Source: an uncultured Dokdonia sp. (GTDB lineage: Bacteria; Bacteroidota; Bacteroidia; Flavobacteriales; Flavobacteriaceae). Taken from it: a stretch of 64,000 nucleotides of DNA. The notes beneath the pieces are model-generated. The model was given only the letters and a program-made list of their open reading frames with translations, did no database searches and was not told the origin of the DNA. The stretch is taken from positions 62,001-126,000 of the forward strand of contig CANNDF010000003.1 in NCBI GenBank assembly GCA_947503305.1. The letters are read 5' to 3'. This document shows positions 3,515 through 12,994 of this stretch, piece after piece. The stretch's first letter is position 1; each line of letters opens with the position of its first letter. The position numbers and the translations under genes are program-made.

Positions 3515-4087
3515 ATGAAACCAGAACAAGAGGTCATATATATTCAGAAAGTACTAGATGGCGATACCGCAGCTTTTACCCCTCTTGTAGATGCATATAA
3601 GAATATGGTTTATACGATAGCCTTAAAAACGATGGGAGATCCCACAGAAGCCGATGATGTCGCTCAAGAGAGTTTTGTTAAGGCTTATCAACAGCTTTCC
3701 CATTTTAATGGTACTTCAAAATTTTCTACATGGTTATATACAATTACCTATAGGACTGCTTTATATGCTTTACGCAGAAACAAAATAAAAACACAAAGTA
3801 TTACCGATAATGATACAGAAACATTTATTTCATATACTCCTTCACAACTAGTTCTACTTTCTCAACAAGAACGTAAGCATTTTGTAAAAGAAGCAATAGA
3901 TAGTTTGCCAAAAATAGAAGGATTACTAGTCACCTTGTATTATATCAATGAAAGTAGTATTGATGAAATTCATGAGATTACCGAATTATCAAAAACAAAT
4001 ATCAAAGTAAAATTGTTTCGTGCTCGCAAAAAGCTTAAAACAAAACTAAGTAGCTTATTAAATGAAGAATTAAAATCAATATTATAG
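3515..4087 (+). CDS. ECF-family RNA polymerase sigma factor
   Basis: 190 residues, the usual size of a two-domain ECF sigma factor. Region 2 (about 20-90) contains the motif DDVAQESFVKAY and a typical FSTWLYTITYR stretch; region 4 (about 125-180) carries the helix-turn-helix that reads the -35 box. It directs RNA polymerase to a small set of promoters, probably including its own and that of the divergent DUF6249 gene, which share TGTAACC-N15-GCATC. The next gene starts 2 bases after its stop and encodes a membrane protein that is probably its anti-sigma factor. Confidence 0.92.
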   Translation: MKPEQEVIYIQKVLDGDTAAFTPLVDAYKNMVYTIALKTMGDPTEADDVAQESFVKAYQQLSHFNGTSKFSTWLYTITYRTALYALRRNKIKTQSITDNDTETFISYTPSQLVLLSQQERKHFVKEAIDSLPKIEGLLVTLYYINESSIDEIHEITELSKTNIKVKLFRARKKLKTKLSSLLNEELKSIL

Positions 4088-4089
4088 CA

Positions 4090-4572
4090 ATGAAGAAGGG
4101 AAGTTTACTAGAAAAATATATAAAAGAAATGCCTTTGGATACTCCTAGTAGTGATTTTACGGAAAGTATAGAACATATTATTGCTACAGATTCTAAGATA
4201 GCATTTAATGAAGATTCATCCTTAAATAATGTACTAAAACGTGCTGCAAAAGACACGTTGCCAATTCATTTTTCAGAAATAGTTACTACAAAAATTCAGC
4301 AAACAAAAGAACAAATGACTATTCTACCCCTGATCTCTTTTAAAGCAGCTATGTATACTTTCTTTGTTATAGTTATAGTTTTATTTGTACTGCTCTTCGT
4401 ACTATTAATTGATAATCAACCTACTATAGATATAAGCACGGTTCAAAAAATACAAAAACCATCATGGATGTCATGGGAGCAGATACCTTCTGTACTCCCA
4501 TTGTCCTGCATAGCATTAAGTTCTCTTTTGATTATTGATCGTTTTTTGCAAAAGAAAACTATGATATATTGA
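4090..4572 (+). CDS. membrane protein, probable anti-sigma factor
   Basis: 160 residues: an N-terminal cytoplasmic region of about 90 residues, then a strongly hydrophobic segment (about 93-118) and a second one near 135-152. There is no zinc-binding HxxxCxxC motif. Position immediately behind the ECF sigma gene, and the resemblance in layout to the gene at 18410-18751, argue that the N-terminal part holds the sigma factor at the membrane. The two genes are almost certainly translated from one message. It ends 6 bases from the convergent stop of the CHAT-protein gene. Confidence 0.7.
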   Translation: MKKGSLLEKYIKEMPLDTPSSDFTESIEHIIATDSKIAFNEDSSLNNVLKRAAKDTLPIHFSEIVTTKIQQTKEQMTILPLISFKAAMYTFFVIVIVLFVLLFVLLIDNQPTIDISTVQKIQKPSWMSWEQIPSVLPLSCIALSSLLIIDRFLQKKTMIY

Positions 4573-4578
4573 TGACCT

Positions 4579-7500
4579 CTATGATATTAACCCCTCTAGA
4601 ACTTTTGTTATCTTCTCAAGATGTGTACGTTTTTTTGGAGAAGTTACAAAGCTTAAGAAAAATTCAATTTCTTTAATTTCCATCTTTATATATCGAGGGC
4701 TGAAGAAAATTCTAAAGAGTTCTAAGTAACGATCTATGATTTCAGTACTTAAGACTTTTTCATCCATATCAGTCACAATCATTTGGCATAAACATATCTC
4801 TATAATACCTAAGAATTTATAAATCTTCATCTCCGCTTTGTTAGAACTATCAAGATTTTGATATATGTCTTTTAAATAAGCATCTATATCATTTTCAGCT
4901 GCATCCATTAATCCAGACTCATGAAGACATGCTAAGAGTGTTGACTCCTTCTCTTTTTCTAATAGATGACCTACATAAATAATATTAGATAACGCATCGT
5001 AATAATCGCCTTTACGTTTTTGATTATTCTCTATTGAAGTTTTATATTTCTGATAAGAACTTATGAGGTATTCTTGTTTTTTCTTGCCTTTTACATGTAC
5101 TGTAGCGTGCTTAAAAGCATTCCCAACAATGTTGAGTCTACTAGGGTTCTTCCCTATTAACAGTAAATTTTCTATACGCTTTAATATTGCATCATGTGAG
5201 TCTTTTGTAATCTCATAGTATGTTTTATTAATACAATATTGTTCCAGTGCTTTCATAGAGAAATCACCATCTATAGATTCAAATAATTCTTCAAATTTTT
5301 GAACAGCAATTTTTGACATTCCTATTTCGTCATAAATTAATGCCTCTTTTTCGATAATAGTTGCATCTGTAAGATTTGCTATATCTGCATTTTTGAGAAT
5401 ATCTTTTAATTTTTTTATGATCTCTTTTTCATCCCGTTTTTTATAGCGTATAGAAGAAAATAGATTTTCTAAATCGGTATAGATTTGTGAAACAATCACA
5501 TAATCATAATTATGCTTTTCCTTTTTCTGGCGATCATTAAATTTGTAAAACTGATTTCCATAACATTGATAGGCTCCCCATGTATTGGTGTTAGGATGTG
5601 TATCATAACATTTTTGACGCGCGAGTTGTACGGCTCTACCAAATTCATATCCTTCTAACATATTGTCATAAAAGGTATCTGAAAACGTTTTGGCCGCAGC
5701 ATCATCTACTTCCCATCCAGCTACTACAATAGCTTTTACACCCATTTCTATAAGTTGTGTACCAACGTTGGCTGCAAATTTATAACGATCTCTTCGGTAA
5801 GGGTTATCGGTTGCTCCTATTTTTCCGGATAAACAACAATTGATAAATACAAATTCTGGTACATATCCTAATTGTTTAAGCATAGGTGGGTCTATATATA
5901 ATCCATCTCCTATGACAATTCCAACCTTTCCTTCTTCAGGAGTATACAAACCATGCCCAGAGAAATGAAGGATTTTATATTTTTCACTAAATAAATCCAA
6001 CATGATTTCATGTGGTTTATTCTTAGTAACCAATGCCTTTGTATTATAGTTTTGATTTCTGAGTACAGAAGCTACTCGTTTTCCTTCTTCTTCGGCAGCT
6101 GGAAGTTGAGGTAGGCTTCCATCATAATCAGGGTCTCCTATAACCAATACATTGATATTACTTACGGCAGTTTCTGTAAACTGTTCTGAATCATCTGTTA
6201 ATAATTGCCTTATTAGCCCCGAACTTACAGCCGCTGGGGTTTCATCTGATGTGAAATCATGGAATAATTCCCATGGGATTTTTGCGGCATCTTTATCTAG
6301 TTTTAAAACAAGATTATTTTGATTTCTAATAATATTTTTAAAATTATTAGGGATTAATAGTTCAAATAAGGTTTTGGAAAGTTTAAAATCAAAACGTTGT
6401 ATTTCTATGATCTGTTTAAGAAGTGTATCTACTTGTTTAAGAGCTACATGAACTGCTTCTCGTTCTACACGGGCATACCCATTTGAAGAATTATATGAAA
6501 AACCAACAACGGTGTTTAATTCCTTTTCTGAATTCCCTAAAATCCCTGAGACATCTAGGCGTTGCCAGGAACTATAACCATCATTTATAAAGGCAACTTT
6601 CTTCTTAGATCCAGATTTTCTTGTAATTCCTTTCTTTAATTTGATGACGATTCGTTTGTCTGAATCCCCTATCCTACTAATACTCCAATACGCTTGACTA
6701 GCTATAGACTCATAATAATTAACAAATTCTATGTTCTTAATTAATTTCAGGCCTTCTCCTTTAGATTTTATATAGCTATTGGCTTTAGAAACACCTAATA
6801 ATATCCCTTTTACAGAATCATTGATAGATAAATTCCCATACCCTATACCGATAAGAATAAATGAAATGCCATTGGCATATTTTTTTGCTCGAGATAACGT
6901 GTAATTGTCCCGCATAAACATGGCATATTTAAGTGTTGCCATTTCTACAGTTTTCGACAGTAAATAAATCGTAAGCTCATTAGTCTTACCAAGACCGCAT
7001 ATAATAGCTCCTTTGGGATTTGTATTAAGGTTAAAAAAGACTTCGCTTTCTCCTATTTTCCCAGGATAATACCCTATTGCATGACGCTGTGATAAACGTT
7101 CATCTAAGGCGCGGTCTAATGCTTTTTCTGCGCTGAAAATCAGGTCATTAAAAAAATGCCCTACCATCACGGGATAATTAGAGACGGTGAGGTCGCCATT
7201 AATAATCTCAACATTGATTTCTTCTACATCAGTAACAACAGGCTTCTGAGCGTTAAACAAGACACCCATTGCTTTGTTTATATCATGTGGAGGTACCGCA
7301 TATTCATAGGCCTCACTCTTTATCTCTACACCTCTTGATATAGGTTCATTTGTAAGGAGTTTGTCTGTAGTACCTTTTGACAGCAAGTCTGAAATGCCTT
7401 CAAAAATATATGCCTCATTTGCTAGTTCTCCATGTGTCGTTCTGGAGTAGTATAGATTTTTAGTGTTAAGAGCTTTAGGAATTCCAGTTTCCCAAGTAAC

Positions 7501-9885
7501 ACTACCGTCGCCTCTTGAAGTAGCCCAGTATACAAGTTTTTTATGTTTTGAAAAATGACGCTTTTTAAGGACATAACTATTTACAGTTTGATCTGCAGCA
7601 CCACATATATAATAAACATCTTTAAAATCTTCAGTTTTTATTTGATTAATAAACTTCAGCACATTATTGCGATATGTCTTAAAGTTATTAAGCGATGTTT
7701 TCTTGGAACTGGGGCTAGGCATTCTTTTAATATTGGCGGCCTTTTTAATATTACTCCAAAAAGCGACTGTTGCAAAATCTCTAGCTGGATTAGTATTCAG
7801 AGGCAATAATTCAAAAACACCCGGATATTTCCAGAAGACTTCTAGTAAATCTTTTCGGTTATGTTTAAAATCTATAGCGGCAAGTTGCTTCACTTTTCCG
7901 CCATGACCAGTGAGTACTTCCATGATTAAGTAAGACCCTAACCATGGAGTCCCCAACATAATATATTTGGTATTACTAGTTGCTTTAAATTTTTTCCAGA
8001 AAGCACCATGATCCATCATTAATTGTCTAACGACAAGCCCTCCCATAGAATGTGCAACAATATGCACATCATTTCCAGCATGATTACGTAATACATTTCC
8101 TAGCAATGCTTGTAATTCTGTAGCAGCAATACTTAGAGATTCTCTCCAATCAAAAGGAAATGTAATAACATCGTATTCTTTTTTAAGGTGTTTTACACAA
8201 TCATCGTAATAATTTTTGATTACACCATCTGCAACAACATTGTCTGAATGAATGTGTAAGTTTGTTGGAATTCCTCCCATATTCATACTAGGAAAATCAA
8301 CCCATTGTTCTTTATTACCTTTGGAAAGCGTAGATCCCATAATCCCTGGAATCAAAATAATAATAGTTCGATCTCCAGAAATATCTTCTATAGGGTAATG
8401 GACTTTCTTAAATGATAAAGGAGAAAGTAAGACTCCTCTATTTTCCTCCGAAATAAGTATCGGGTTATAATCAAGAGCTGGCTGCTCAGGGGTAGCCATC
8501 AATGCTTGAAGTATAACATCACATGTATTCTTATTAGAAAAGTAATTAAAATGATTTGTATCACTATCTTTAGATAAATAATCTCTAGTCCCAGAAACTC
8601 TAGGCACTCCATGTAACATTCTATCTGTATCGACAACTAAATCATTAGGAACCCTATAAAAAAGATTTGCTAGAATTACATAAATAGAATCTAAAGAAAG
8701 ACTCCCTATCTCTGCATCGCCAGAAATTGTGTACAATTCTCCTACTACTCTATTTTCGGTATAATTGAATACTTTTTGAAAAGTAGATTCTGGCATCATA
8801 CTATTAAGGCCTGGCATTGCCTCTGGATCTGCTTTTTGAGCTATGACTTCTAAAAGAAAAGACTTTACCACATCATAGATAGGATTTTTTATCCCAAAAG
8901 CAAGACCTATACCATTGAGCATAAGATTAAAAAAATGATCTACACGTCTCGATAGAATAGTTGTCCCACTAGATGGGGCTGCTACACGTATTACTTTTCC
9001 TATAGTAAGTTTTTTATCCTCTATAAGTTTATTTAACGTAAGCATAAGATCATAAGAAACCTGATCTTCTGTTTCGATCATTTCGAGCTCTTCCTGACTG
9101 AATCCTCTAATCTTATTGCGATGGTCACATTTGGAAATAATATCTGCAATAAGTCCTCCCCTAGAATGACTTACAATATCAAATTCAAATTCATCAGGAC
9201 ATGCTTTTAAAAAGTCGATTGCGTTTGCAATAGGACTTTCGGACAATGTCCAGTGTTCAAGGGCAATTGTTCTATTTTTATAAAGAGAGAATATTTGGTC
9301 CCAAGTAGAGTTATTATTTGCGTTTAACTCTCCAAAAGCATCTCTTGTTGTAGAAAGGGTCCCGTGAATAAGTACTAAGTATTTTTTGGAGACTTCTGAT
9401 GGAGCATCCCATGGCTCTATGGTAAAGCTATCACTTACATTATATATGCCCGGTACAGGAACCGTTTTTTTATCATATCCTTCTGCAAGTCGTTTTGCTG
9501 TATATTTTGCAGCAACGGGAATAACTTTAGGTCTAAATATATTAAGCACTTTTACAAGTGCGCTTTTGATACCACCCCTTGTCGTACTGTTTTGATCATT
9601 GAGGTGTGCATTAAATATAAATACACCATCAGATCGTGTAGCTACTTCTCCGTATATATCTTTTACATCATCGGGATATCCTATCCATTCTGATCCATCT
9701 TCAAAGCGTAATGCAATGATATCATCATCTTCAAAAGAAATGGCAACAGGAGTGCTATTGGCTCTTGTATTTGAAATCTCTACAGTTTGTACACATTCAA
9801 AACTGGAGTACACCCCCTGATGATCTTTAAAGTCTTTGACACTTAGTGTACTATCTGCTTTACTAAAAATCTTTGCTTTCTCCAT
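4579..9885 (-). CDS. giant dual alpha/beta hydrolase-CHAT protease fusion
   Basis: 1768 residues with no signal peptide, so probably cytoplasmic. Domain order: (1) an alpha/beta hydrolase at about 160-460 with LIHGT (172-176) and nucleophile elbow H240-S241-R-G-G; (2) an LCAT/lipase-like hydrolase at about 505-840 with oxyanion motif IPGIMGS (512-518), elbow H612-S613-M-G-G, and candidate acid and base D793 (GDGSV) and H818; (3) a region at about 890-1000 whose GLGKTNEL stretch resembles the macro-like N-terminal domain of M17 aminopeptidases; (4) a CHAT domain at about 1240-1445 with HFSGHG (catalytic H1311) and INCCLSG (catalytic C1351); (5) a helical, TPR-like tail to the end. CHAT proteins are caspase/separase-like peptidases that often act in bacterial defence or programmed death. 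Joining one to two intact lipase-type active sites suggests protease-controlled lipid or ester hydrolysis, which is inference. It is a single-gene unit. Confidence 0.85.
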   Translation of the reverse strand: MEKAKIFSKADSTLSVKDFKDHQGVYSSFECVQTVEISNTRANSTPVAISFEDDDIIALRFEDGSEWIGYPDDVKDIYGEVATRSDGVFIFNAHLNDQNSTTRGGIKSALVKVLNIFRPKVIPVAAKYTAKRLAEGYDKKTVPVPGIYNVSDSFTIEPWDAPSEVSKKYLVLIHGTLSTTRDAFGELNANNNSTWDQIFSLYKNRTIALEHWTLSESPIANAIDFLKACPDEFEFDIVSHSRGGLIADIISKCDHRNKIRGFSQEELEMIETEDQVSYDLMLTLNKLIEDKKLTIGKVIRVAAPSSGTTILSRRVDHFFNLMLNGIGLAFGIKNPIYDVVKSFLLEVIAQKADPEAMPGLNSMMPESTFQKVFNYTENRVVGELYTISGDAEIGSLSLDSIYVILANLFYRVPNDLVVDTDRMLHGVPRVSGTRDYLSKDSDTNHFNYFSNKNTCDVILQALMATPEQPALDYNPILISEENRGVLLSPLSFKKVHYPIEDISGDRTIIILIPGIMGSTLSKGNKEQWVDFPSMNMGGIPTNLHIHSDNVVADGVIKNYYDDCVKHLKKEYDVITFPFDWRESLSIAATELQALLGNVLRNHAGNDVHIVAHSMGGLVVRQLMMDHGAFWKKFKATSNTKYIMLGTPWLGSYLIMEVLTGHGGKVKQLAAIDFKHNRKDLLEVFWKYPGVFELLPLNTNPARDFATVAFWSNIKKAANIKRMPSPSSKKTSLNNFKTYRNNVLKFINQIKTEDFKDVYYICGAADQTVNSYVLKKRHFSKHKKLVYWATSRGDGSVTWETGIPKALNTKNLYYSRTTHGELANEAYIFEGISDLLSKGTTDKLLTNEPISRGVEIKSEAYEYAVPPHDINKAMGVLFNAQKPVVTDVEEINVEIINGDLTVSNYPVMVGHFFNDLIFSAEKALDRALDERLSQRHAIGYYPGKIGESEVFFNLNTNPKGAIICGLGKTNELTIYLLSKTVEMATLKYAMFMRDNYTLSRAKKYANGISFILIGIGYGNLSINDSVKGILLGVSKANSYIKSKGEGLKLIKNIEFVNYYESIASQAYWSISRIGDSDKRIVIKLKKGITRKSGSKKKVAFINDGYSSWQRLDVSGILGNSEKELNTVVGFSYNSSNGYARVEREAVHVALKQVDTLLKQIIEIQRFDFKLSKTLFELLIPNNFKNIIRNQNNLVLKLDKDAAKIPWELFHDFTSDETPAAVSSGLIRQLLTDDSEQFTETAVSNINVLVIGDPDYDGSLPQLPAAEEEGKRVASVLRNQNYNTKALVTKNKPHEIMLDLFSEKYKILHFSGHGLYTPEEGKVGIVIGDGLYIDPPMLKQLGYVPEFVFINCCLSGKIGATDNPYRRDRYKFAANVGTQLIEMGVKAIVVAGWEVDDAAAKTFSDTFYDNMLEGYEFGRAVQLARQKCYDTHPNTNTWGAYQCYGNQFYKFNDRQKKEKHNYDYVIVSQIYTDLENLFSSIRYKKRDEKEIIKKLKDILKNADIANLTDATIIEKEALIYDEIGMSKIAVQKFEELFESIDGDFSMKALEQYCINKTYYEITKDSHDAILKRIENLLLIGKNPSRLNIVGNAFKHATVHVKGKKKQEYLISSYQKYKTSIENNQKRKGDYYDALSNIIYVGHLLEKEKESTLLACLHESGLMDAAENDIDAYLKDIYQNLDSSNKAEMKIYKFLGIIEICLCQMIVTDMDEKVLSTEIIDRYLELFRIFFSPRYIKMEIKEIEFFLSFVTSPKKRTHLEKITKVLEGLIS

Positions 9886-10093: not shown

Positions 10094-10678
10094 TTATTCT
10101 TTCCAACCCCATGGAGGGGCTGGTTGTTCTGTAGTTTTGGAAAGATCAAAGACAACTTTAAATACGCGTTCAGTACCTAAACGTCTTAAATTATACGTAA
10201 AGTGAGTCTTGTCTAGAGTAATCCACCATATATTTCCAGATGCAGCAGGAATCATATTTTGGGTTTCTGGATCTGCAGGAAATACTTGAATTGTATCCTG
10301 CCCACTATTTGTTGTAGTTCCACCATACATTGTAATAGTATCTGGAGATCCATCTTCATGGCGATGGTCATGTTTTAATGTAATACGATCTGTATTTTTG
10401 GTAAGTACCCATGTTCGGGATTTATCATCTCCTACAAAAAATGGAATTTTAATCACTGTATCCGTACAGGAGCGTACATGCATTATTAATGTTTTACCAG
10501 AAAATGAATCCTCCTCTTTGGGAAGTACAAGTGTCCCTTCATAGGCATTTCCACATAATGTTTGAAGAGAATTCCAAAAATTTTCAGAAGGTGTTTTTTC
10601 TTGACAAACAAGTAAACCACTCGTCAATACTAAAGAAAAAAAGCACATATAGAACCGTATACTATTAGATAGTATCAT
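10094..10678 (-). CDS. secreted protein of unknown function
   Basis: 194 residues with an N-terminal signal sequence of about 24 residues ending in GLLVCQEK; the cysteine could be lipidated, but Val at -1 is not a normal lipobox residue. The mature part is predicted mostly beta and contains a Cys-Gly pair and a C-R-S-C-like set (C48, C69 region) that could form a disulfide. I do not recognise a named family. Its start lies 5 bases after the stop of the cold-shock gene on the same strand, so the two are probably co-transcribed. Confidence 0.7.
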   Translation of the reverse strand: MILSNSIRFYMCFFSLVLTSGLLVCQEKTPSENFWNSLQTLCGNAYEGTLVLPKEEDSFSGKTLIMHVRSCTDTVIKIPFFVGDDKSRTWVLTKNTDRITLKHDHRHEDGSPDTITMYGGTTTNSGQDTIQVFPADPETQNMIPAASGNIWWITLDKTHFTYNLRRLGTERVFKVVFDLSKTTEQPAPPWGWKE

Positions 10679-10683
10679 ATGTA

Positions 10684-11139
10684 CTATACTTTCTGAACAC
10701 GAACAGCATTCATCCCTTTCATTCCTTTTTCAAGTTCAAACGAGACATTGTCATTCTCGGCAATCTGATCGATTAATCCACTTACGTGGCAAAAGTACTT
10801 CTCTTGATTTTCTGCATCTATAATAAATCCAAATCCTTTTGATGTATCAAAAAAGGACACTTTTCCTTTTCGTACAGGATCAAATTTATCTTCATCGCTT
10901 TTTTCCTTTTTAGGAATTCCTAATACAATATCTTCTACATCTACTTCTATCTTATCATTTGGATCTGGAGGAGTATCCGTTAGATTTCCAAAATGATCTA
11001 CATAAGCAAATTGAATTCCACCCCCTTTTTCTTTGGCCTCAGCTCGGCGGGCTTCTTTTTTCTTTTGTTTTTCTTCACGCTTTTTAAGACGCTTTTTTTC
11101 TTTTTCTAGTTTATTGAAGGTTTGCTGAGATTTTGCCAT
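10684..11139 (-). CDS. cold-shock domain protein with lysine-rich N-terminus
   Basis: 151 residues. The C-terminal ~65 residues form a cold-shock (OB-fold) domain that binds single-stranded nucleic acid: the RNP-1-like motif KGFGFI and the RNP-2-like motif YFCHV are visible. The first ~40 residues are a charged Lys/Glu/Arg-rich helix, followed by a linker, an arrangement common in Bacteroidota cold-shock proteins and longer than the ~70-residue CspA type. It probably acts as an RNA chaperone. Translation starts at the ATG at 11139; the gene for a small secreted protein follows closely. Confidence 0.9.
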   Translation of the reverse strand: MAKSQQTFNKLEKEKKRLKKREEKQKKKEARRAEAKEKGGGIQFAYVDHFGNLTDTPPDPNDKIEVDVEDIVLGIPKKEKSDEDKFDPVRKGKVSFFDTSKGFGFIIDAENQEKYFCHVSGLIDQIAENDNVSFELEKGMKGMNAVRVQKV

Positions 11140-11440: not shown

Positions 11441-12994
11441 ATGAAATCACTACTACTAAACACGCTCCTTTTGTTATTAAGTTTTGGGGCATTACTTGCT
11501 CAAAAAACAAACCCTGTTATAGAAGGGATTATAAAAGAAGCCAATGAAAATTCGAAGTTAGAAATACTAGCTCATGAAATGACAGACCTTATAGGCCCTA
11601 GGTTAGTAGGGACACCACAAATGAAAAAAGCAAATGATTGGGCTGTCGCCAAATACGAAAGCTGGGGTATCCCTGCTAAAAATGAAGCTTGGGGCGAATG
11701 GCGTGGCTGGGAACGTGGTATTACTCATATAGATATGGTACATCCACGTATACAGAGTTTACGAGGCACACAACTTGCATGGAATCCTAGCACATCTAAA
11801 GAAGGAGTTACTGCCGAACTCGCAGTACTTCCTATTTCTTTAAAAGACTCTCTCGAATTTGACAAATGGCTACCTACTGTTAAAGGGAAAATTGTTTTGA
11901 TATCTATGCATCAACCTACAGGAAGACCTGATTATAATTGGGAAGAATTTGCAACAGAATCTTCTTTTACAAAAATGAAAGATGCACGTGATACACAAAC
12001 CAAAGCATGGCGTGAGAATATGAAAATAACAGGTTATAATAGACGTACACTCCCTGTTGCTCTAGAAAAAGCTGGTGCTGTCGGTATTGTAACATCTAAT
12101 TGGTCACGTGGATTTGGGGTGAATAAAATTTTTAGTGCGTACACAAAAAAAATACCTACTGTAGATCTGGAGTTAGAAGATTATGGAATGTTATATCGTC
12201 TTGTACTTTCTGGGAATCAACCACAAATTACAATAGTAGCTCAGTCTAAAGAGTTAGGAAAAGTTCCTACGTTTAATACCATCGCCGAAATCAAAGGAAC
12301 TGAAAAGCCAGACGAATATGTGATACTGTCTGCACATTTTGATTCATGGGATGGTGGTACTGGAGCTACAGATAATGGAACGGGCACATTAGTCATGATG
12401 GAAGCAATGCGTATTTTAAAAAAAATGTATCCAAACCCTAAACGAACGATTCTTGTAGGACATTGGGGAAGTGAAGAACAAGGTTTAAATGGCTCTAGAG
12501 CTTTTGTAGAAGATCATCCAGAAATTGTTAAAGGGGTTCAGGCCTCTTTTAATCAAGATAATGGAACAGGGCGTGTTGTTAGATTATCTGGAGGCGGGTT
12601 TTTATACGCTTATGACTATTTGTCTAGATGGCTTAATGCTGTTCCAAAAGAAATTACCGATCATATAGAAACCACATTTCCTGGTACTCCTGCACGTGGA
12701 GGATCTGATTATGCATCCTTTCAAGCTGCTGGAGCTCCTGCCTTTAGTTTAAGTTCATTAAATTGGTCATACTGGGATTATACATGGCACACAAATCGTG
12801 ATACCTACGATAAAATCATTTTTGATGATGTACGAAATAATGCTATTCTCACAGCTATTTTAACCTATATGGCTAGTGAAGATCCAGAAAGAACATCAAG
12901 AGTTAAAAGTGTATTACCAGTAGATACACGTACGGGAGAACCTCGTGTATGGCCTACTCCTAGAAGCCCAAATAGAAAAGGAGGACTAGATTAA
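11441..12994 (+). CDS. secreted M28-family zinc metallopeptidase
   Basis: 517 residues with a signal peptide (cleavage near A20). An N-terminal part with a PA-like insertion (about 120-270) precedes the catalytic domain (about 280-470). Expected zinc ligands and catalytic residues are all present: H299 and D301, D311, the acidic pair E345-E346, D373 and H450. Family members are co-catalytic di-zinc aminopeptidases or carboxypeptidases that release amino acids from peptides, acting in the periplasm or outside. The C-terminal 45 residues are Pro/Arg rich with no T9SS sorting domain. It is transcribed alone and ends at a strong bidirectional terminator. Confidence 0.92.
   Translation: MKSLLLNTLLLLLSFGALLAQKTNPVIEGIIKEANENSKLEILAHEMTDLIGPRLVGTPQMKKANDWAVAKYESWGIPAKNEAWGEWRGWERGITHIDMVHPRIQSLRGTQLAWNPSTSKEGVTAELAVLPISLKDSLEFDKWLPTVKGKIVLISMHQPTGRPDYNWEEFATESSFTKMKDARDTQTKAWRENMKITGYNRRTLPVALEKAGAVGIVTSNWSRGFGVNKIFSAYTKKIPTVDLELEDYGMLYRLVLSGNQPQITIVAQSKELGKVPTFNTIAEIKGTEKPDEYVILSAHFDSWDGGTGATDNGTGTLVMMEAMRILKKMYPNPKRTILVGHWGSEEQGLNGSRAFVEDHPEIVKGVQASFNQDNGTGRVVRLSGGGFLYAYDYLSRWLNAVPKEITDHIETTFPGTPARGGSDYASFQAAGAPAFSLSSLNWSYWDYTWHTNRDTYDKIIFDDVRNNAILTAILTYMASEDPERTSRVKSVLPVDTRTGEPRVWPTPRSPNRKGGLD

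What the first reader, a model, noticed from the sequence alone, without database searches (positions are those of the whole stretch)
4579..9885. Single chain carrying two lipase-type active sites and a CHAT protease
Seen: two serine nucleophile elbows (S241, S613) with a plausible acid/base pair for the second (D793, H818), a CHAT His/Cys pair (H1311, C1351) and a helical tail, in one cytoplasmic protein. Known: CHAT domains are caspase-like proteases and commonly act in defence or self-killing systems. Inferred: the CHAT part may activate or release the lipase domains, damaging the host membrane on a trigger sensed by the TPR-like tail. I know no described system with this order of parts.
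Basis: partly seen in the sequence, partly recalled or inferred. Interest (0 to 1): 0.7.

Follow-up and report, generated by a model that had tools for sequence, protein, structure and literature searches.

The report
Protease-gated double-lipase bacterial defence protein
One large bacterial protein joins two lipase-like enzymes, a nucleotide-binding-like domain, a caspase-like protease and a helical tail, with active sites kept in distant relatives, which suggests a self-cutting, membrane-attacking suicide weapon.

Summary
The 1,768-aa ORF (4579-9885, minus) has two alpha/beta-hydrolase (lipase) domains, each with a candidate Ser/Asp/His triad, a CHAT (clan CD) protease with a His/Cys dyad, and a TPR-like helical tail. 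The order is the same in the full-length members of 84 compared proteins (chosen as best-scoring relatives) from Bacteroidota, Proteobacteria, Desulfobacterota-type and Nitrospirales bins; 4 of 84 lost the second lipase serine, none the other two nucleophiles where that part is present.

New here: Arg followed by Gly/Ser/Ala is conserved at R41, R84, R103, R483 and R851 inside poorly conserved linkers, and three of the four least ordered segments of the N-terminal model hold one of them. The CHAT fold resembles Arg-specific separase. I propose that CHAT cuts these linkers and frees the lipases to damage the membrane: a single-chain, protease-gated suicide effector.

The gene is sporadic, apparently horizontally moved, and in some relatives lies near or is fused to TIR, STAND, SIR2, caspase or NucA-type genes. 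Cleavage, lipase activity and defence are untested. New variant of a known kind.

The parts
4579..9885 (-). Whole gene, 1,768 aa, ATG start
9451..9885 (-). N-terminal beta-rich region, residues 1-145, with conserved R41 (codon 9763-9765), R84 (9634-9636) and R103 (9577-9579) in weakly conserved sequence
8476..9438 (-). Lipase-like alpha/beta-hydrolase domain 1 (DUF7379), residues about 150-470; nucleophile S241 (9163-9165), candidate acid D415 (8641-8643), base H445 (8551-8553)
8365..8475 (-). Inter-lipase linker, residues 471-507, with conserved R483 (8437-8439) in the pLDDT<50 segment 479-489
7372..8364 (-). Lipase domain 2 (LCAT / lysosomal phospholipase A2-like), residues about 508-838; S613 (8047-8049), D793 (7507-7509), H818 (7432-7434)
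7231..7371 (-). Linker between lipase 2 and macro-like domain, residues 839-885, with conserved P848 and R851 (7333-7335)
6571..7230 (-). Macro-like domain of leucine-aminopeptidase N-domain (M17_N) type, residues about 886-1105
   Evidence: sub-threshold; M17_N over cut-off in relative L019
5554..6381 (-). CHAT protease domain, residues 1169-1444; H1311 (5953-5955), C1351 (5833-5835); candidate S1 acids E1267 and D1395
4582..5493 (-). C-terminal helical, TPR-like tail, residues 1465-1768 (modelled to 1704)

Best explanation
A (probably cytoplasmic) self-processed suicide effector of the bacterial conflict-system type. At rest both lipases are held in one chain with the CHAT protease. A trigger, perhaps a ligand of the macro-like domain or a partner of the TPR-like tail, activates CHAT. 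CHAT cuts after conserved arginines in the linkers (R483 and R851, and R41/R84/R103 near the N-terminus), separating lipase 1 and lipase 2 from the regulator; the freed lipases hydrolyse membrane lipids and stop or kill the infected cell. Shown here: architecture, fold matches, near-invariant catalytic residues, conserved Arg-small dipeptides in linkers, sporadic and non-syntenic occurrence, immune-type neighbours in a subset of relatives. Inferred: location, protease activation, Arg specificity, self-cleavage, lipid substrate, trigger, cell suicide.
For: Catalytic residues near-invariant in 84 homologues that are 25-57% identical to the window protein over the segments aligned. Five conserved Arg (R41 in 82, R84 72, R103 81, R483 79, R851 81 of 84) are followed by Gly/Ser/Ala in 67 of 82, 64 of 72, 76 of 81, 55 of 79 and 80 of 81 cases; of the 11 other Arg columns conserved at 80% or more, only R242, in the catalytic elbow (82 of 82), behaves so, the remaining 10 having 0 to 26% small followers. 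Thinned to 42 clusters at 50% identity, the Arg stays in 41, 37, 40, 39 and 39. Of 140 columns conserved at 80% or more in residues 1-880 (11 of them Arg), 4 fall in pLDDT<50 segments and 3 of these are Arg, hypergeometric p 0.0014 (post hoc). The second model matches separase (5fby, E 1.4e-5), an enzyme that cleaves after Arg (PMC4626109 passages). E1267 and D1395 are 84 of 84, compatible by sequence order with the acids of P1-Arg pockets. Divergent relative L019 (lipase 2, macro-like, CHAT only) has Arg-Gly before the lipase and Arg-Ser after it. Of 36 close, mostly co-directional neighbour genes or C-terminal extensions that I picked by hand for Pfam, 17 (12 loci) matched TIR, nSTAND1, SIR2, caspase, patatin or Endonuclease_NS. 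A home-made TIR profile hit 20 of 458 genes at gene positions 1-3, 4 of 139 at position 4 and 7 of 501 at positions 5-10.
Against: No activity was tested. Arg-Gly after the lipase also occurs, by eye, in 3 of 6 stand-alone lipase homologues without a fused protease (L105, L106, L107), so R851 may belong to the lipase linker or serve a protease in trans. Csx29 (TPR-CHAT) cuts Csx30 between residues 427 and 429, and the passages seen do not call it Arg-specific, so the CHAT fold does not give the specificity. The residue two before the catalytic Cys is Asn (N1349, 84 of 84), where MALT1 has Asp462 (position relative to its Cys recalled). R41 lies in a fairly confident turn (block mean 81). The Arg statistics were post hoc, and other isolated conserved columns are not Arg (G8, W710, W1107, P725 and more). 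The 84 proteins are best-scoring relatives, not a random sample. The home-made nSTAND1 profile shows no gradient: 7 of 458 genes at positions 1-3 and 7 of 501 at positions 5-10, with likely drift to transporters; the caspase seed gave 2 and 2. The TIR profile also drifted (it hit L080 +1, which Pfam calls a deoxyribosyltransferase). The window's own scanned neighbours hold no recognised defence gene apart from a general cold-shock-domain model in PADLOC (CSD_V, E 4.5e-9). PADLOC near/far (84 versus 20 families) counts overlapping families, not genes, and the far set held phospholipase effectors. Four of 84 lost S613, three of them also H818. Domain placement in model 2 is uncertain (pTM 0.57).
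Confidence: 0.5

Rival explanations
1. The CHAT protease acts mainly on a separate protein (for example the downstream NucA-type nuclease of some relatives, or an anti-sigma factor), and the lipases are a second arm controlled in another way; the conserved Arg are structural or docking residues.
For: Csx29 (TPR-CHAT) cleaves a separate anti-sigma factor, Csx30 (PMC10028731, abstract and passages). An Endonuclease_NS gene lies directly downstream in L009 (same locus as L089) and L010 (same as L023) and two co-directional genes downstream in L019. An ECF sigma factor and a two-TM protein lie tail-to-tail with the window gene. Arg-Gly also follows some stand-alone lipases.
Against: Among 86 loci compared, the largest cluster of neighbour genes touches 15 loci and mixes proteins of 121 to 2,032 aa, so no constant partner was found within six genes. 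Sigma-factor matches near relatives lie at gene positions +3 (L033) and -4 (L020) only, and the 160-aa neighbour has none; that protein was found in 1 of 59 genomes, its own.
Confidence: 0.25
2. The conserved Arg loops are pseudo-substrate inhibitors: they occupy the CHAT S1 pocket and keep the protease off until a trigger displaces them, as the gingipain prodomain loop does.
For: Gingipain prodomain Arg126 inhibitory loop (PMC4357240 passage). Explains an Arg in exposed loops as well as cleavage does.
Against: Five such positions are more than one inhibitor needs; no model of the whole chain could be made (limit 1,200 aa).
Confidence: 0.1
3. A housekeeping or lipid-remodelling enzyme rather than a defence effector; CHAT is a regulatory protease of lipid metabolism.
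For: The double-lipase model is closest to lysosomal phospholipase A2 and LCAT. No constant immune partner was found, and 19 of the 36 hand-picked neighbours or extensions had no match to the immune-type families counted.
Against: Sporadic: 9 of 395 genomes of the phylum match the macro-CHAT profile, 5 of them (own included) over the full length. In the genus 5 of 18 genomes have a match (own included; G007 a short fragment, G015 in two pieces), the three longer same-genus copies at 50-52% identity, while the flanking peptidase gene is in 14 of 18 and 86-88% identical in those species. Carried on plasmids. TIR-fused in L088 and L095 and beside STAND/TIR/SIR2 genes in part of the loci.
Confidence: 0.15

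Closest known systems
VMAP ternary conflict systems with paired caspase-superfamily peptidase and alpha/beta-hydrolase (Kaur et al. 2020, eLife 9:e52696, PMC7159879; passages seen)
   Same: A caspase-type peptidase always accompanied by an alpha/beta-hydrolase, with the proposal that proteolysis frees effectors
   Different: There the hydrolase is a neighbouring gene and MoxR/vWA/VMAP genes are present; here two hydrolases and CHAT share one chain, and no such genes matched among the window proteins scanned
NucA-peptidase system ('System 3', same paper)
   Same: A peptidase coupled to an effector enzyme with proposed proteolytic activation; some relatives of the window protein have an Endonuclease_NS gene downstream
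   Different: Its core is trypsin plus NucA; neither matched beside the window gene
Craspase / TPR-CHAT Csx29, type III-E CRISPR (PMC10028731 abstract and passages; PMC9729208 start of abstract in a search listing)
   Same: CHAT protease fold (7y85) with a TPR-like part; cuts its substrate in a flexible loop
   Different: No Cas7-11 or Csx30 matched; lipases fused instead; TPR-like part is C-terminal here (N-terminal in Csx29 from recall)
SAVED-CHAT (PDB 8tl0)
   Same: CHAT fold match; a ligand-sensing domain beside CHAT (SAVED function recalled)
   Different: Macro-like M17_N-type domain here, not SAVED; lipases fused; its primary paper was not seen
Canu caspase-nuclease and HamMAB gated nucleases (PMC12799240; abstract, opening and one section read)
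   Same: A protease unmasks a pro-effector by site-specific cleavage
   Different: The effector is an MBL-type nuclease in a separate gene
MARTX cysteine protease domain (clan CD, family C80; PMC4357240 passages; multi-site effector release recalled)
   Same: A ligand-activated clan CD protease that processes its own multi-domain chain
   Different: Unrelated secreted proteins with Leu at P1; here a CHAT with candidate Arg sites

Membership tests
CHAT protease family (PF12770) | Significant CHAT profile match | tested here: met
   81.5 bits versus cut-off 24, residues 1169-1444
CHAT protease family (PF12770) | His/Cys dyad conserved | tested here: met
   H1311 and C1351 84 of 84
CHAT protease family (PF12770) | Peptidase activity | not testable with these tools
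   needs biochemistry
Arg-specific clan CD protease (separase/gingipain type) | Acidic residues in the S1 pocket | tested here: inconclusive
   E1267 and D1395 84 of 84, assigned by sequence order; no coordinates to check geometry; N1349, two before the Cys, is not acidic
Alpha/beta-hydrolase lipases (LCAT PF02450, DUF7379 PF24096) | Profile match over cut-off | tested here: met
   LCAT 44.9 (cut-off 21), DUF7379 109.7 (cut-off 33)
Alpha/beta-hydrolase lipases (LCAT PF02450, DUF7379 PF24096) | Ser/Asp/His conserved in both domains | tested here: met
   S241/D415/H445 83 of 84 each with 1 gap; S613 80, D793 84, H818 81 of 84; triad geometry not checked
Alpha/beta-hydrolase lipases (LCAT PF02450, DUF7379 PF24096) | Lipase or phospholipase activity | not testable with these tools
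   needs assay
NucA-peptidase system (Kaur 2020 System 3) | NucA-type nuclease gene with trypsin-like peptidase | tested here: not met
   No Endonuclease_NS or trypsin match among the window's 8 Pfam-scanned proteins
VMAP ternary system | MoxR, vWA and VMAP genes next door | tested here: not met
   None matched among the 8 Pfam-scanned window proteins; window genes beyond 11.1 kb were not Pfam-scanned
Type III-E Craspase | Cas7-11/gRAMP and Csx30 partners | tested here: not met
   No such match among the proteins scanned
Known anti-phage system in PADLOC-DB 2.0.0 | Significant match of the main protein | tested here: not met
   Only DUF3644, E 0.0031, no stretch passing on its own
Macro / M17_N domain | Fold | tested here: met
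   2dx6 E 1.1e-4, TM (target) 0.72; leucine aminopeptidase 6ome E 9.6e-5, aligned query range not shown there; profile A6 positions 20-98 hit 3jru, E 0.0071
Macro / M17_N domain | ADP-ribose or other ligand binding | not tested
   No coordinates or ligand modelling available

The most novel reading that the evidence does not exclude
A bacterial polyprotein weapon: a ligand-sensing macro-like domain (in some relatives perhaps reading a product of the neighbouring or fused TIR enzyme) switches on an Arg-specific CHAT protease that cuts its own chain at up to five conserved Arg-small sites and releases two different lipases at once. It would be a single-protein bacterial counterpart of caspase release of a membrane-destroying effector, with lipases in place of gasdermin pores.
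Probability: 0.2. Interest if true: 0.85.

Novelty: new variant of a known kind. Interest (0 to 1): 0.62.

Why it matters
Proteolytic release of killing enzymes in bacteria has been proposed or shown mainly for two-gene peptidase/effector pairs. A single conserved chain that holds the protease, candidate cut sites, two lipases and a ligand-type domain would let the whole sense-cut-kill route be tested in one protein. The conserved linker arginines give exact, falsifiable cleavage predictions, and a macro-like domain next to CHAT, beside TIR enzymes in some relatives, suggests a testable link from a nucleotide signal to a protease.

Tried and rejected
Sigma/anti-sigma link: an ECF sigma factor and a two-TM 160-aa protein lie tail-to-tail with the gene, reminiscent of Csx29/Csx30/CASP-sigma. 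Not supported: the pair is not kept beside relatives.

A constant partner gene: clustering of neighbours within six genes over 86 loci gave none. Conserved cassettes exist in small groups only (about 163/480/513 aa after L047, L056, L062, L078, L082; about 411/116/534 aa after L022, L025, L031).

PADLOC near/far comparison: 84 versus 20 families for 136 proteins each (gene positions 1-2 versus 6-7 on both sides) from the 34 loci with enough flank. Families overlap, the near list shows only 25 of 84, and one near protein (L027) is the split-off end of the main gene; suggestive only. Home-made profiles: TIR falls off with distance, nSTAND1 and caspase do not.

Fused C-terminal extensions (L020, L043, L088, L095) also show Arg-Gly or Arg-Ser in their linkers by eye; by my rough estimate about one such dipeptide is expected in 100 residues, so no weight was given. 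The L020 extension looks trypsin-like by eye, but Pfam found no trypsin match there.

Triad and S1-pocket geometry could not be measured: VIA-align was not available and no coordinate files are laid out.

Literature: searched the held open-access library. I saw the listings only (for example 20 of 338 papers, 10 of 665) and passages of a few papers; no description of this lipase-lipase-macro-CHAT chain was seen. Passages were also seen of PMC8195603 and PMC10907252. Subscription papers and preprints are largely outside the library.

Rows dropped before the 84-sequence count: L007-L011 (same proteins as window, L031, L089, L023, L029), L012 and L013 (fragments), L018 and L019 (other architectures: no lipases, and one lipase without tail). 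The structure alignments used 61 and 60 sequences, a hand-thinned part of the 84.
Full report
What is there. The minus-strand ORF at 4579-9885 is 1,768 aa long. Pfam places DUF7379, LCAT and CHAT over their cut-offs and a sub-threshold Peptidase_M17_N between LCAT and CHAT. DUF7379 is a domain of unknown function by name; I read it as an alpha/beta-hydrolase because of the strand/helix order in the model, the SHSRGG elbow around S241, and because the same profile weakly matches the elbow region of the LCAT-type lipases of L019 (E 0.035) and L099 (E 0.0016). phmmer against the PDB gives group XV phospholipase A2 as best, weak match for lipase 2 (E 0.0071). PADLOC has no good match for the main protein.

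Relatives. Of 59 genomes searched (own included), 6 have a match: own, G030, G011, G014, G015 (in two pieces) and G007 (a 60-residue stretch). tblastn against plasmids found 25 records, 7 of them covering at least 80% of the query, at 27.6-28.7% identity. Of these 79, 71 carry an ORF of 1,700-1,880 aa, four are longer through C-terminal extensions (L020, L043, L088, L095) and four are cut or split (L027, L029, L044, L069). Because the best-scoring were kept, this understates variety: two plasmid relatives fetched separately have only macro-like plus CHAT plus a TPR-S tail (L018) or lipase 2 plus macro-like plus CHAT (L019). Titles name mainly Bacteroidota, with Desulfuromonadales, Geobacter, Desulfatitalea, Deltaproteobacteria, Gallionellaceae, Chromatiales, a gammaproteobacterial endosymbiont and a Nitrospirales bin.

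The host.

Catalytic residues. In 84 aligned proteins: S241, D415 and H445 in 83 with one gap each; S613 in 80 (Gly in L061, L066, L072; Glu in L043); D793 in 84; H818 in 81 (Tyr in the same three, all Chitinophaga); H1311 and C1351 in 84. In this set lipase 1 and CHAT were never lost where that part of the protein is present; lipase 2 lost its serine in four.

Structure. Model 1 (residues 1-880, 61 sequences): pLDDT 87.6, pTM 0.88, pLDDT<50 segments 82-85, 101-104, 123-127 and 479-489. Foldseek gives lysosomal phospholipase A2 (4x92, E 1.9e-10), LCAT, the phospholipase effector Tle4 and Geobacillus lipases; the output does not say which of the two domains was aligned. Model 2 (residues 505-1704, 60 sequences): pLDDT 86.8, pTM 0.57. 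Foldseek gives lipase BlEst2 (6wpy), separase (5fby E 1.4e-5, 5fc3), SAVED-CHAT (8tl0), Craspase TPR-CHAT (7y85), the macro-type protein 2dx6 (E 1.1e-4, TM 0.72 on the target; its being a macro domain is recalled) and leucine aminopeptidases over about 190 columns. A profile of the macro-CHAT stretch hits a leucine aminopeptidase near its N-terminus (3jru, E 0.0071). In relative L019 Peptidase_M17_N is over its cut-off (29.8 versus 23.4).

Linker arginines. Of 184 columns conserved at 90% or more, ranked by how poorly their surroundings are conserved, R483, R41, R103 and R851 rank 2, 3, 4 and 12; G8, W710, W1107, P725, G1092, L543, G537 and L732 fill the other places among the first twelve. 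Sixteen Arg columns are conserved in at least 80% of sequences. Those followed mostly by Gly/Ser/Ala are R41 (67 of 82), R84 (64 of 72), R103 (76 of 81), R483 (55 of 79), R851 (80 of 81) and R242 (82 of 82, the nucleophile elbow); the other ten range from 0 of 84 to 20 of 77. Thinned to 42 clusters the five linker Arg stay in 37-41. Three of four pLDDT<50 segments hold one of them; p 0.0014 at the 80% threshold, 0.0022 at 85%, 0.0097 at 90%, all post hoc. R851 lies in a block with mean pLDDT 66, R41 in one with mean 81. Against: 3 of 6 stand-alone lipase homologues fetched (L102-L107) also show Arg-Gly downstream of the lipase without a fused protease. Separases cleave after Arg and are thought to use two acidic S1 residues (PMC4626109 passages); gingipain and MALT1 also bind P1 Arg by acids (PMC4357240 passages). 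The family has invariant acids E1267 and D1395, but I could not check that they line the pocket.

Genomic setting. In the genus the gene is matched in 5 of 18 genomes counting own. Same-genus copies are 50-52% identical over their longer stretches, whereas the peptidase gene at 11441-12994 is in 14 of 18 genomes and 86-88% identical in those same species. In G011 and G014 the two genes lie on different contigs, the CHAT gene about 98 kb and 70 kb from the nearer contig end, so they are not neighbours there. This is the pattern of a horizontally acquired gene. In a phylum sample 9 of 395 genomes matched the macro-CHAT profile at E 1e-40, 5 of them (own included) over the full length, all five in open frames of 1,769-1,823 aa; the other four matched in part, in frames of 896-1,277 aa.

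Neighbours. I picked by hand 36 close neighbour genes or C-terminal extensions for Pfam; 17, in 12 loci, matched TIR, nSTAND1, SIR2, caspase, patatin or Endonuclease_NS: TIR in L018 (twice), L054 (twice), L075 (with LRR-Roc), L087, L088 (fused and next door) and L094; nSTAND1 in L014, L018 (twice) and L054; SIR2 in L019 and L054; caspase in L060; patatin in L095; Endonuclease_NS in L009, L010 and L019. L095 also has a fused TIR by a home-made profile. The other 19 included a SNF2 helicase (L055), ordinary families and proteins without a match. The home-made TIR profile, which drifted somewhat, hit 20 of 458 genes at positions 1-3, 4 of 139 at position 4 and 7 of 501 at positions 5-10; an nSTAND1 profile hit 7 of 458 and 7 of 501, no gradient. 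Stand-alone homologues of lipase 2 lie beside serine protease (L102), AAA ATPase (L103), ATP-binding protein (L106), GUN4 and NACHT (L105), and TIR-like plus cyclase genes (L107); L104 has hypothetical proteins.

Window neighbours. Upstream on the same strand: a 194-aa protein with a signal-peptide-like start (10094-10678) and a cold-shock-domain protein (10684-11139); downstream and convergent: a 160-aa two-TM protein and an ECF sigma factor. Near relatives, the sigma factor has matches at L033 and L020 and the serine hydrolase at 1193-2908 at L037, L070 and L027; the others have none. They are not counted as parts.

Mechanism. The best reading is a protease-gated double-lipase effector. Shown: domains, catalytic conservation, linker arginines, mobility, immune-type company in part of the relatives. 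Inferred: trigger, cleavage, lipase release, membrane damage, suicide. Kaur et al. 2020 already proposed that peptidases in conflict systems free effectors and noted that VMAP caspases always have an alpha/beta-hydrolase neighbour (PMC7159879 passages). CHAT cleavage in a flexible loop is shown for Csx29 (PMC10028731 passages) and caspase activation of a pro-nuclease for Canu (PMC12799240, section read). So the kind is known; the single-chain double-lipase form with a macro-like domain and conserved Arg linkers was not seen in the listings.

Noticed in passing
window 3515-4572 (+): ECF sigma factor (190 aa) with a 160-aa two-TM protein, tail-to-tail with the CHAT gene; reminiscent of CHAT/sigma circuits but not kept beside relatives.
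   Followed up: partly
window 10684-11139 (-): Cold-shock domain at the C-terminus of a 151-aa protein, preceded by about 90 residues of unknown type; sub-threshold match to the retron Se72 effector model (E 4.4e-8) and to PADLOC CSD_V.
   Followed up: no
own genome, L001-L005: Five further CHAT proteins in open frames of 876-1,114 aa, not examined.
   Followed up: no
L061, L066, L072: Chitinophaga copies with lipase 2 lost (S613G and H818Y together) but lipase 1 and CHAT residues intact.
   Followed up: no
L088 and L095, C-terminal about 230 aa: TIR domain fused to the C-terminus of the double-lipase CHAT protein.
   Followed up: partly
L020 and L043 C-terminal extensions: L020: trypsin-like by eye, not confirmed by Pfam; L043: amidohydrolase PF04909.
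   Followed up: partly
L099:5848-8370: An LCAT-type lipase fused to a trypsin-like peptidase (Trypsin_2, E 1.5e-22) in one plasmid protein: another lipase-protease fusion.
   Followed up: partly
L102-L107: Stand-alone LCAT-like lipases beside serine protease, AAA ATPase, GUN4/NACHT, or TIR-like and cyclase genes on plasmids.
   Followed up: partly
L016 and L017, upstream ORF of about 1,090 aa: Paracoccus copies follow a large gene (SBP_bac_3 match in L017) with a gap of 0 or 41 bases; function unclear.
   Followed up: no
L018:6007-8814: A lipase-free macro-CHAT protein with a TPR-S tail, between two TIR-nSTAND1-WD40 genes and beside a glycosyl hydrolase 108 gene.
   Followed up: partly
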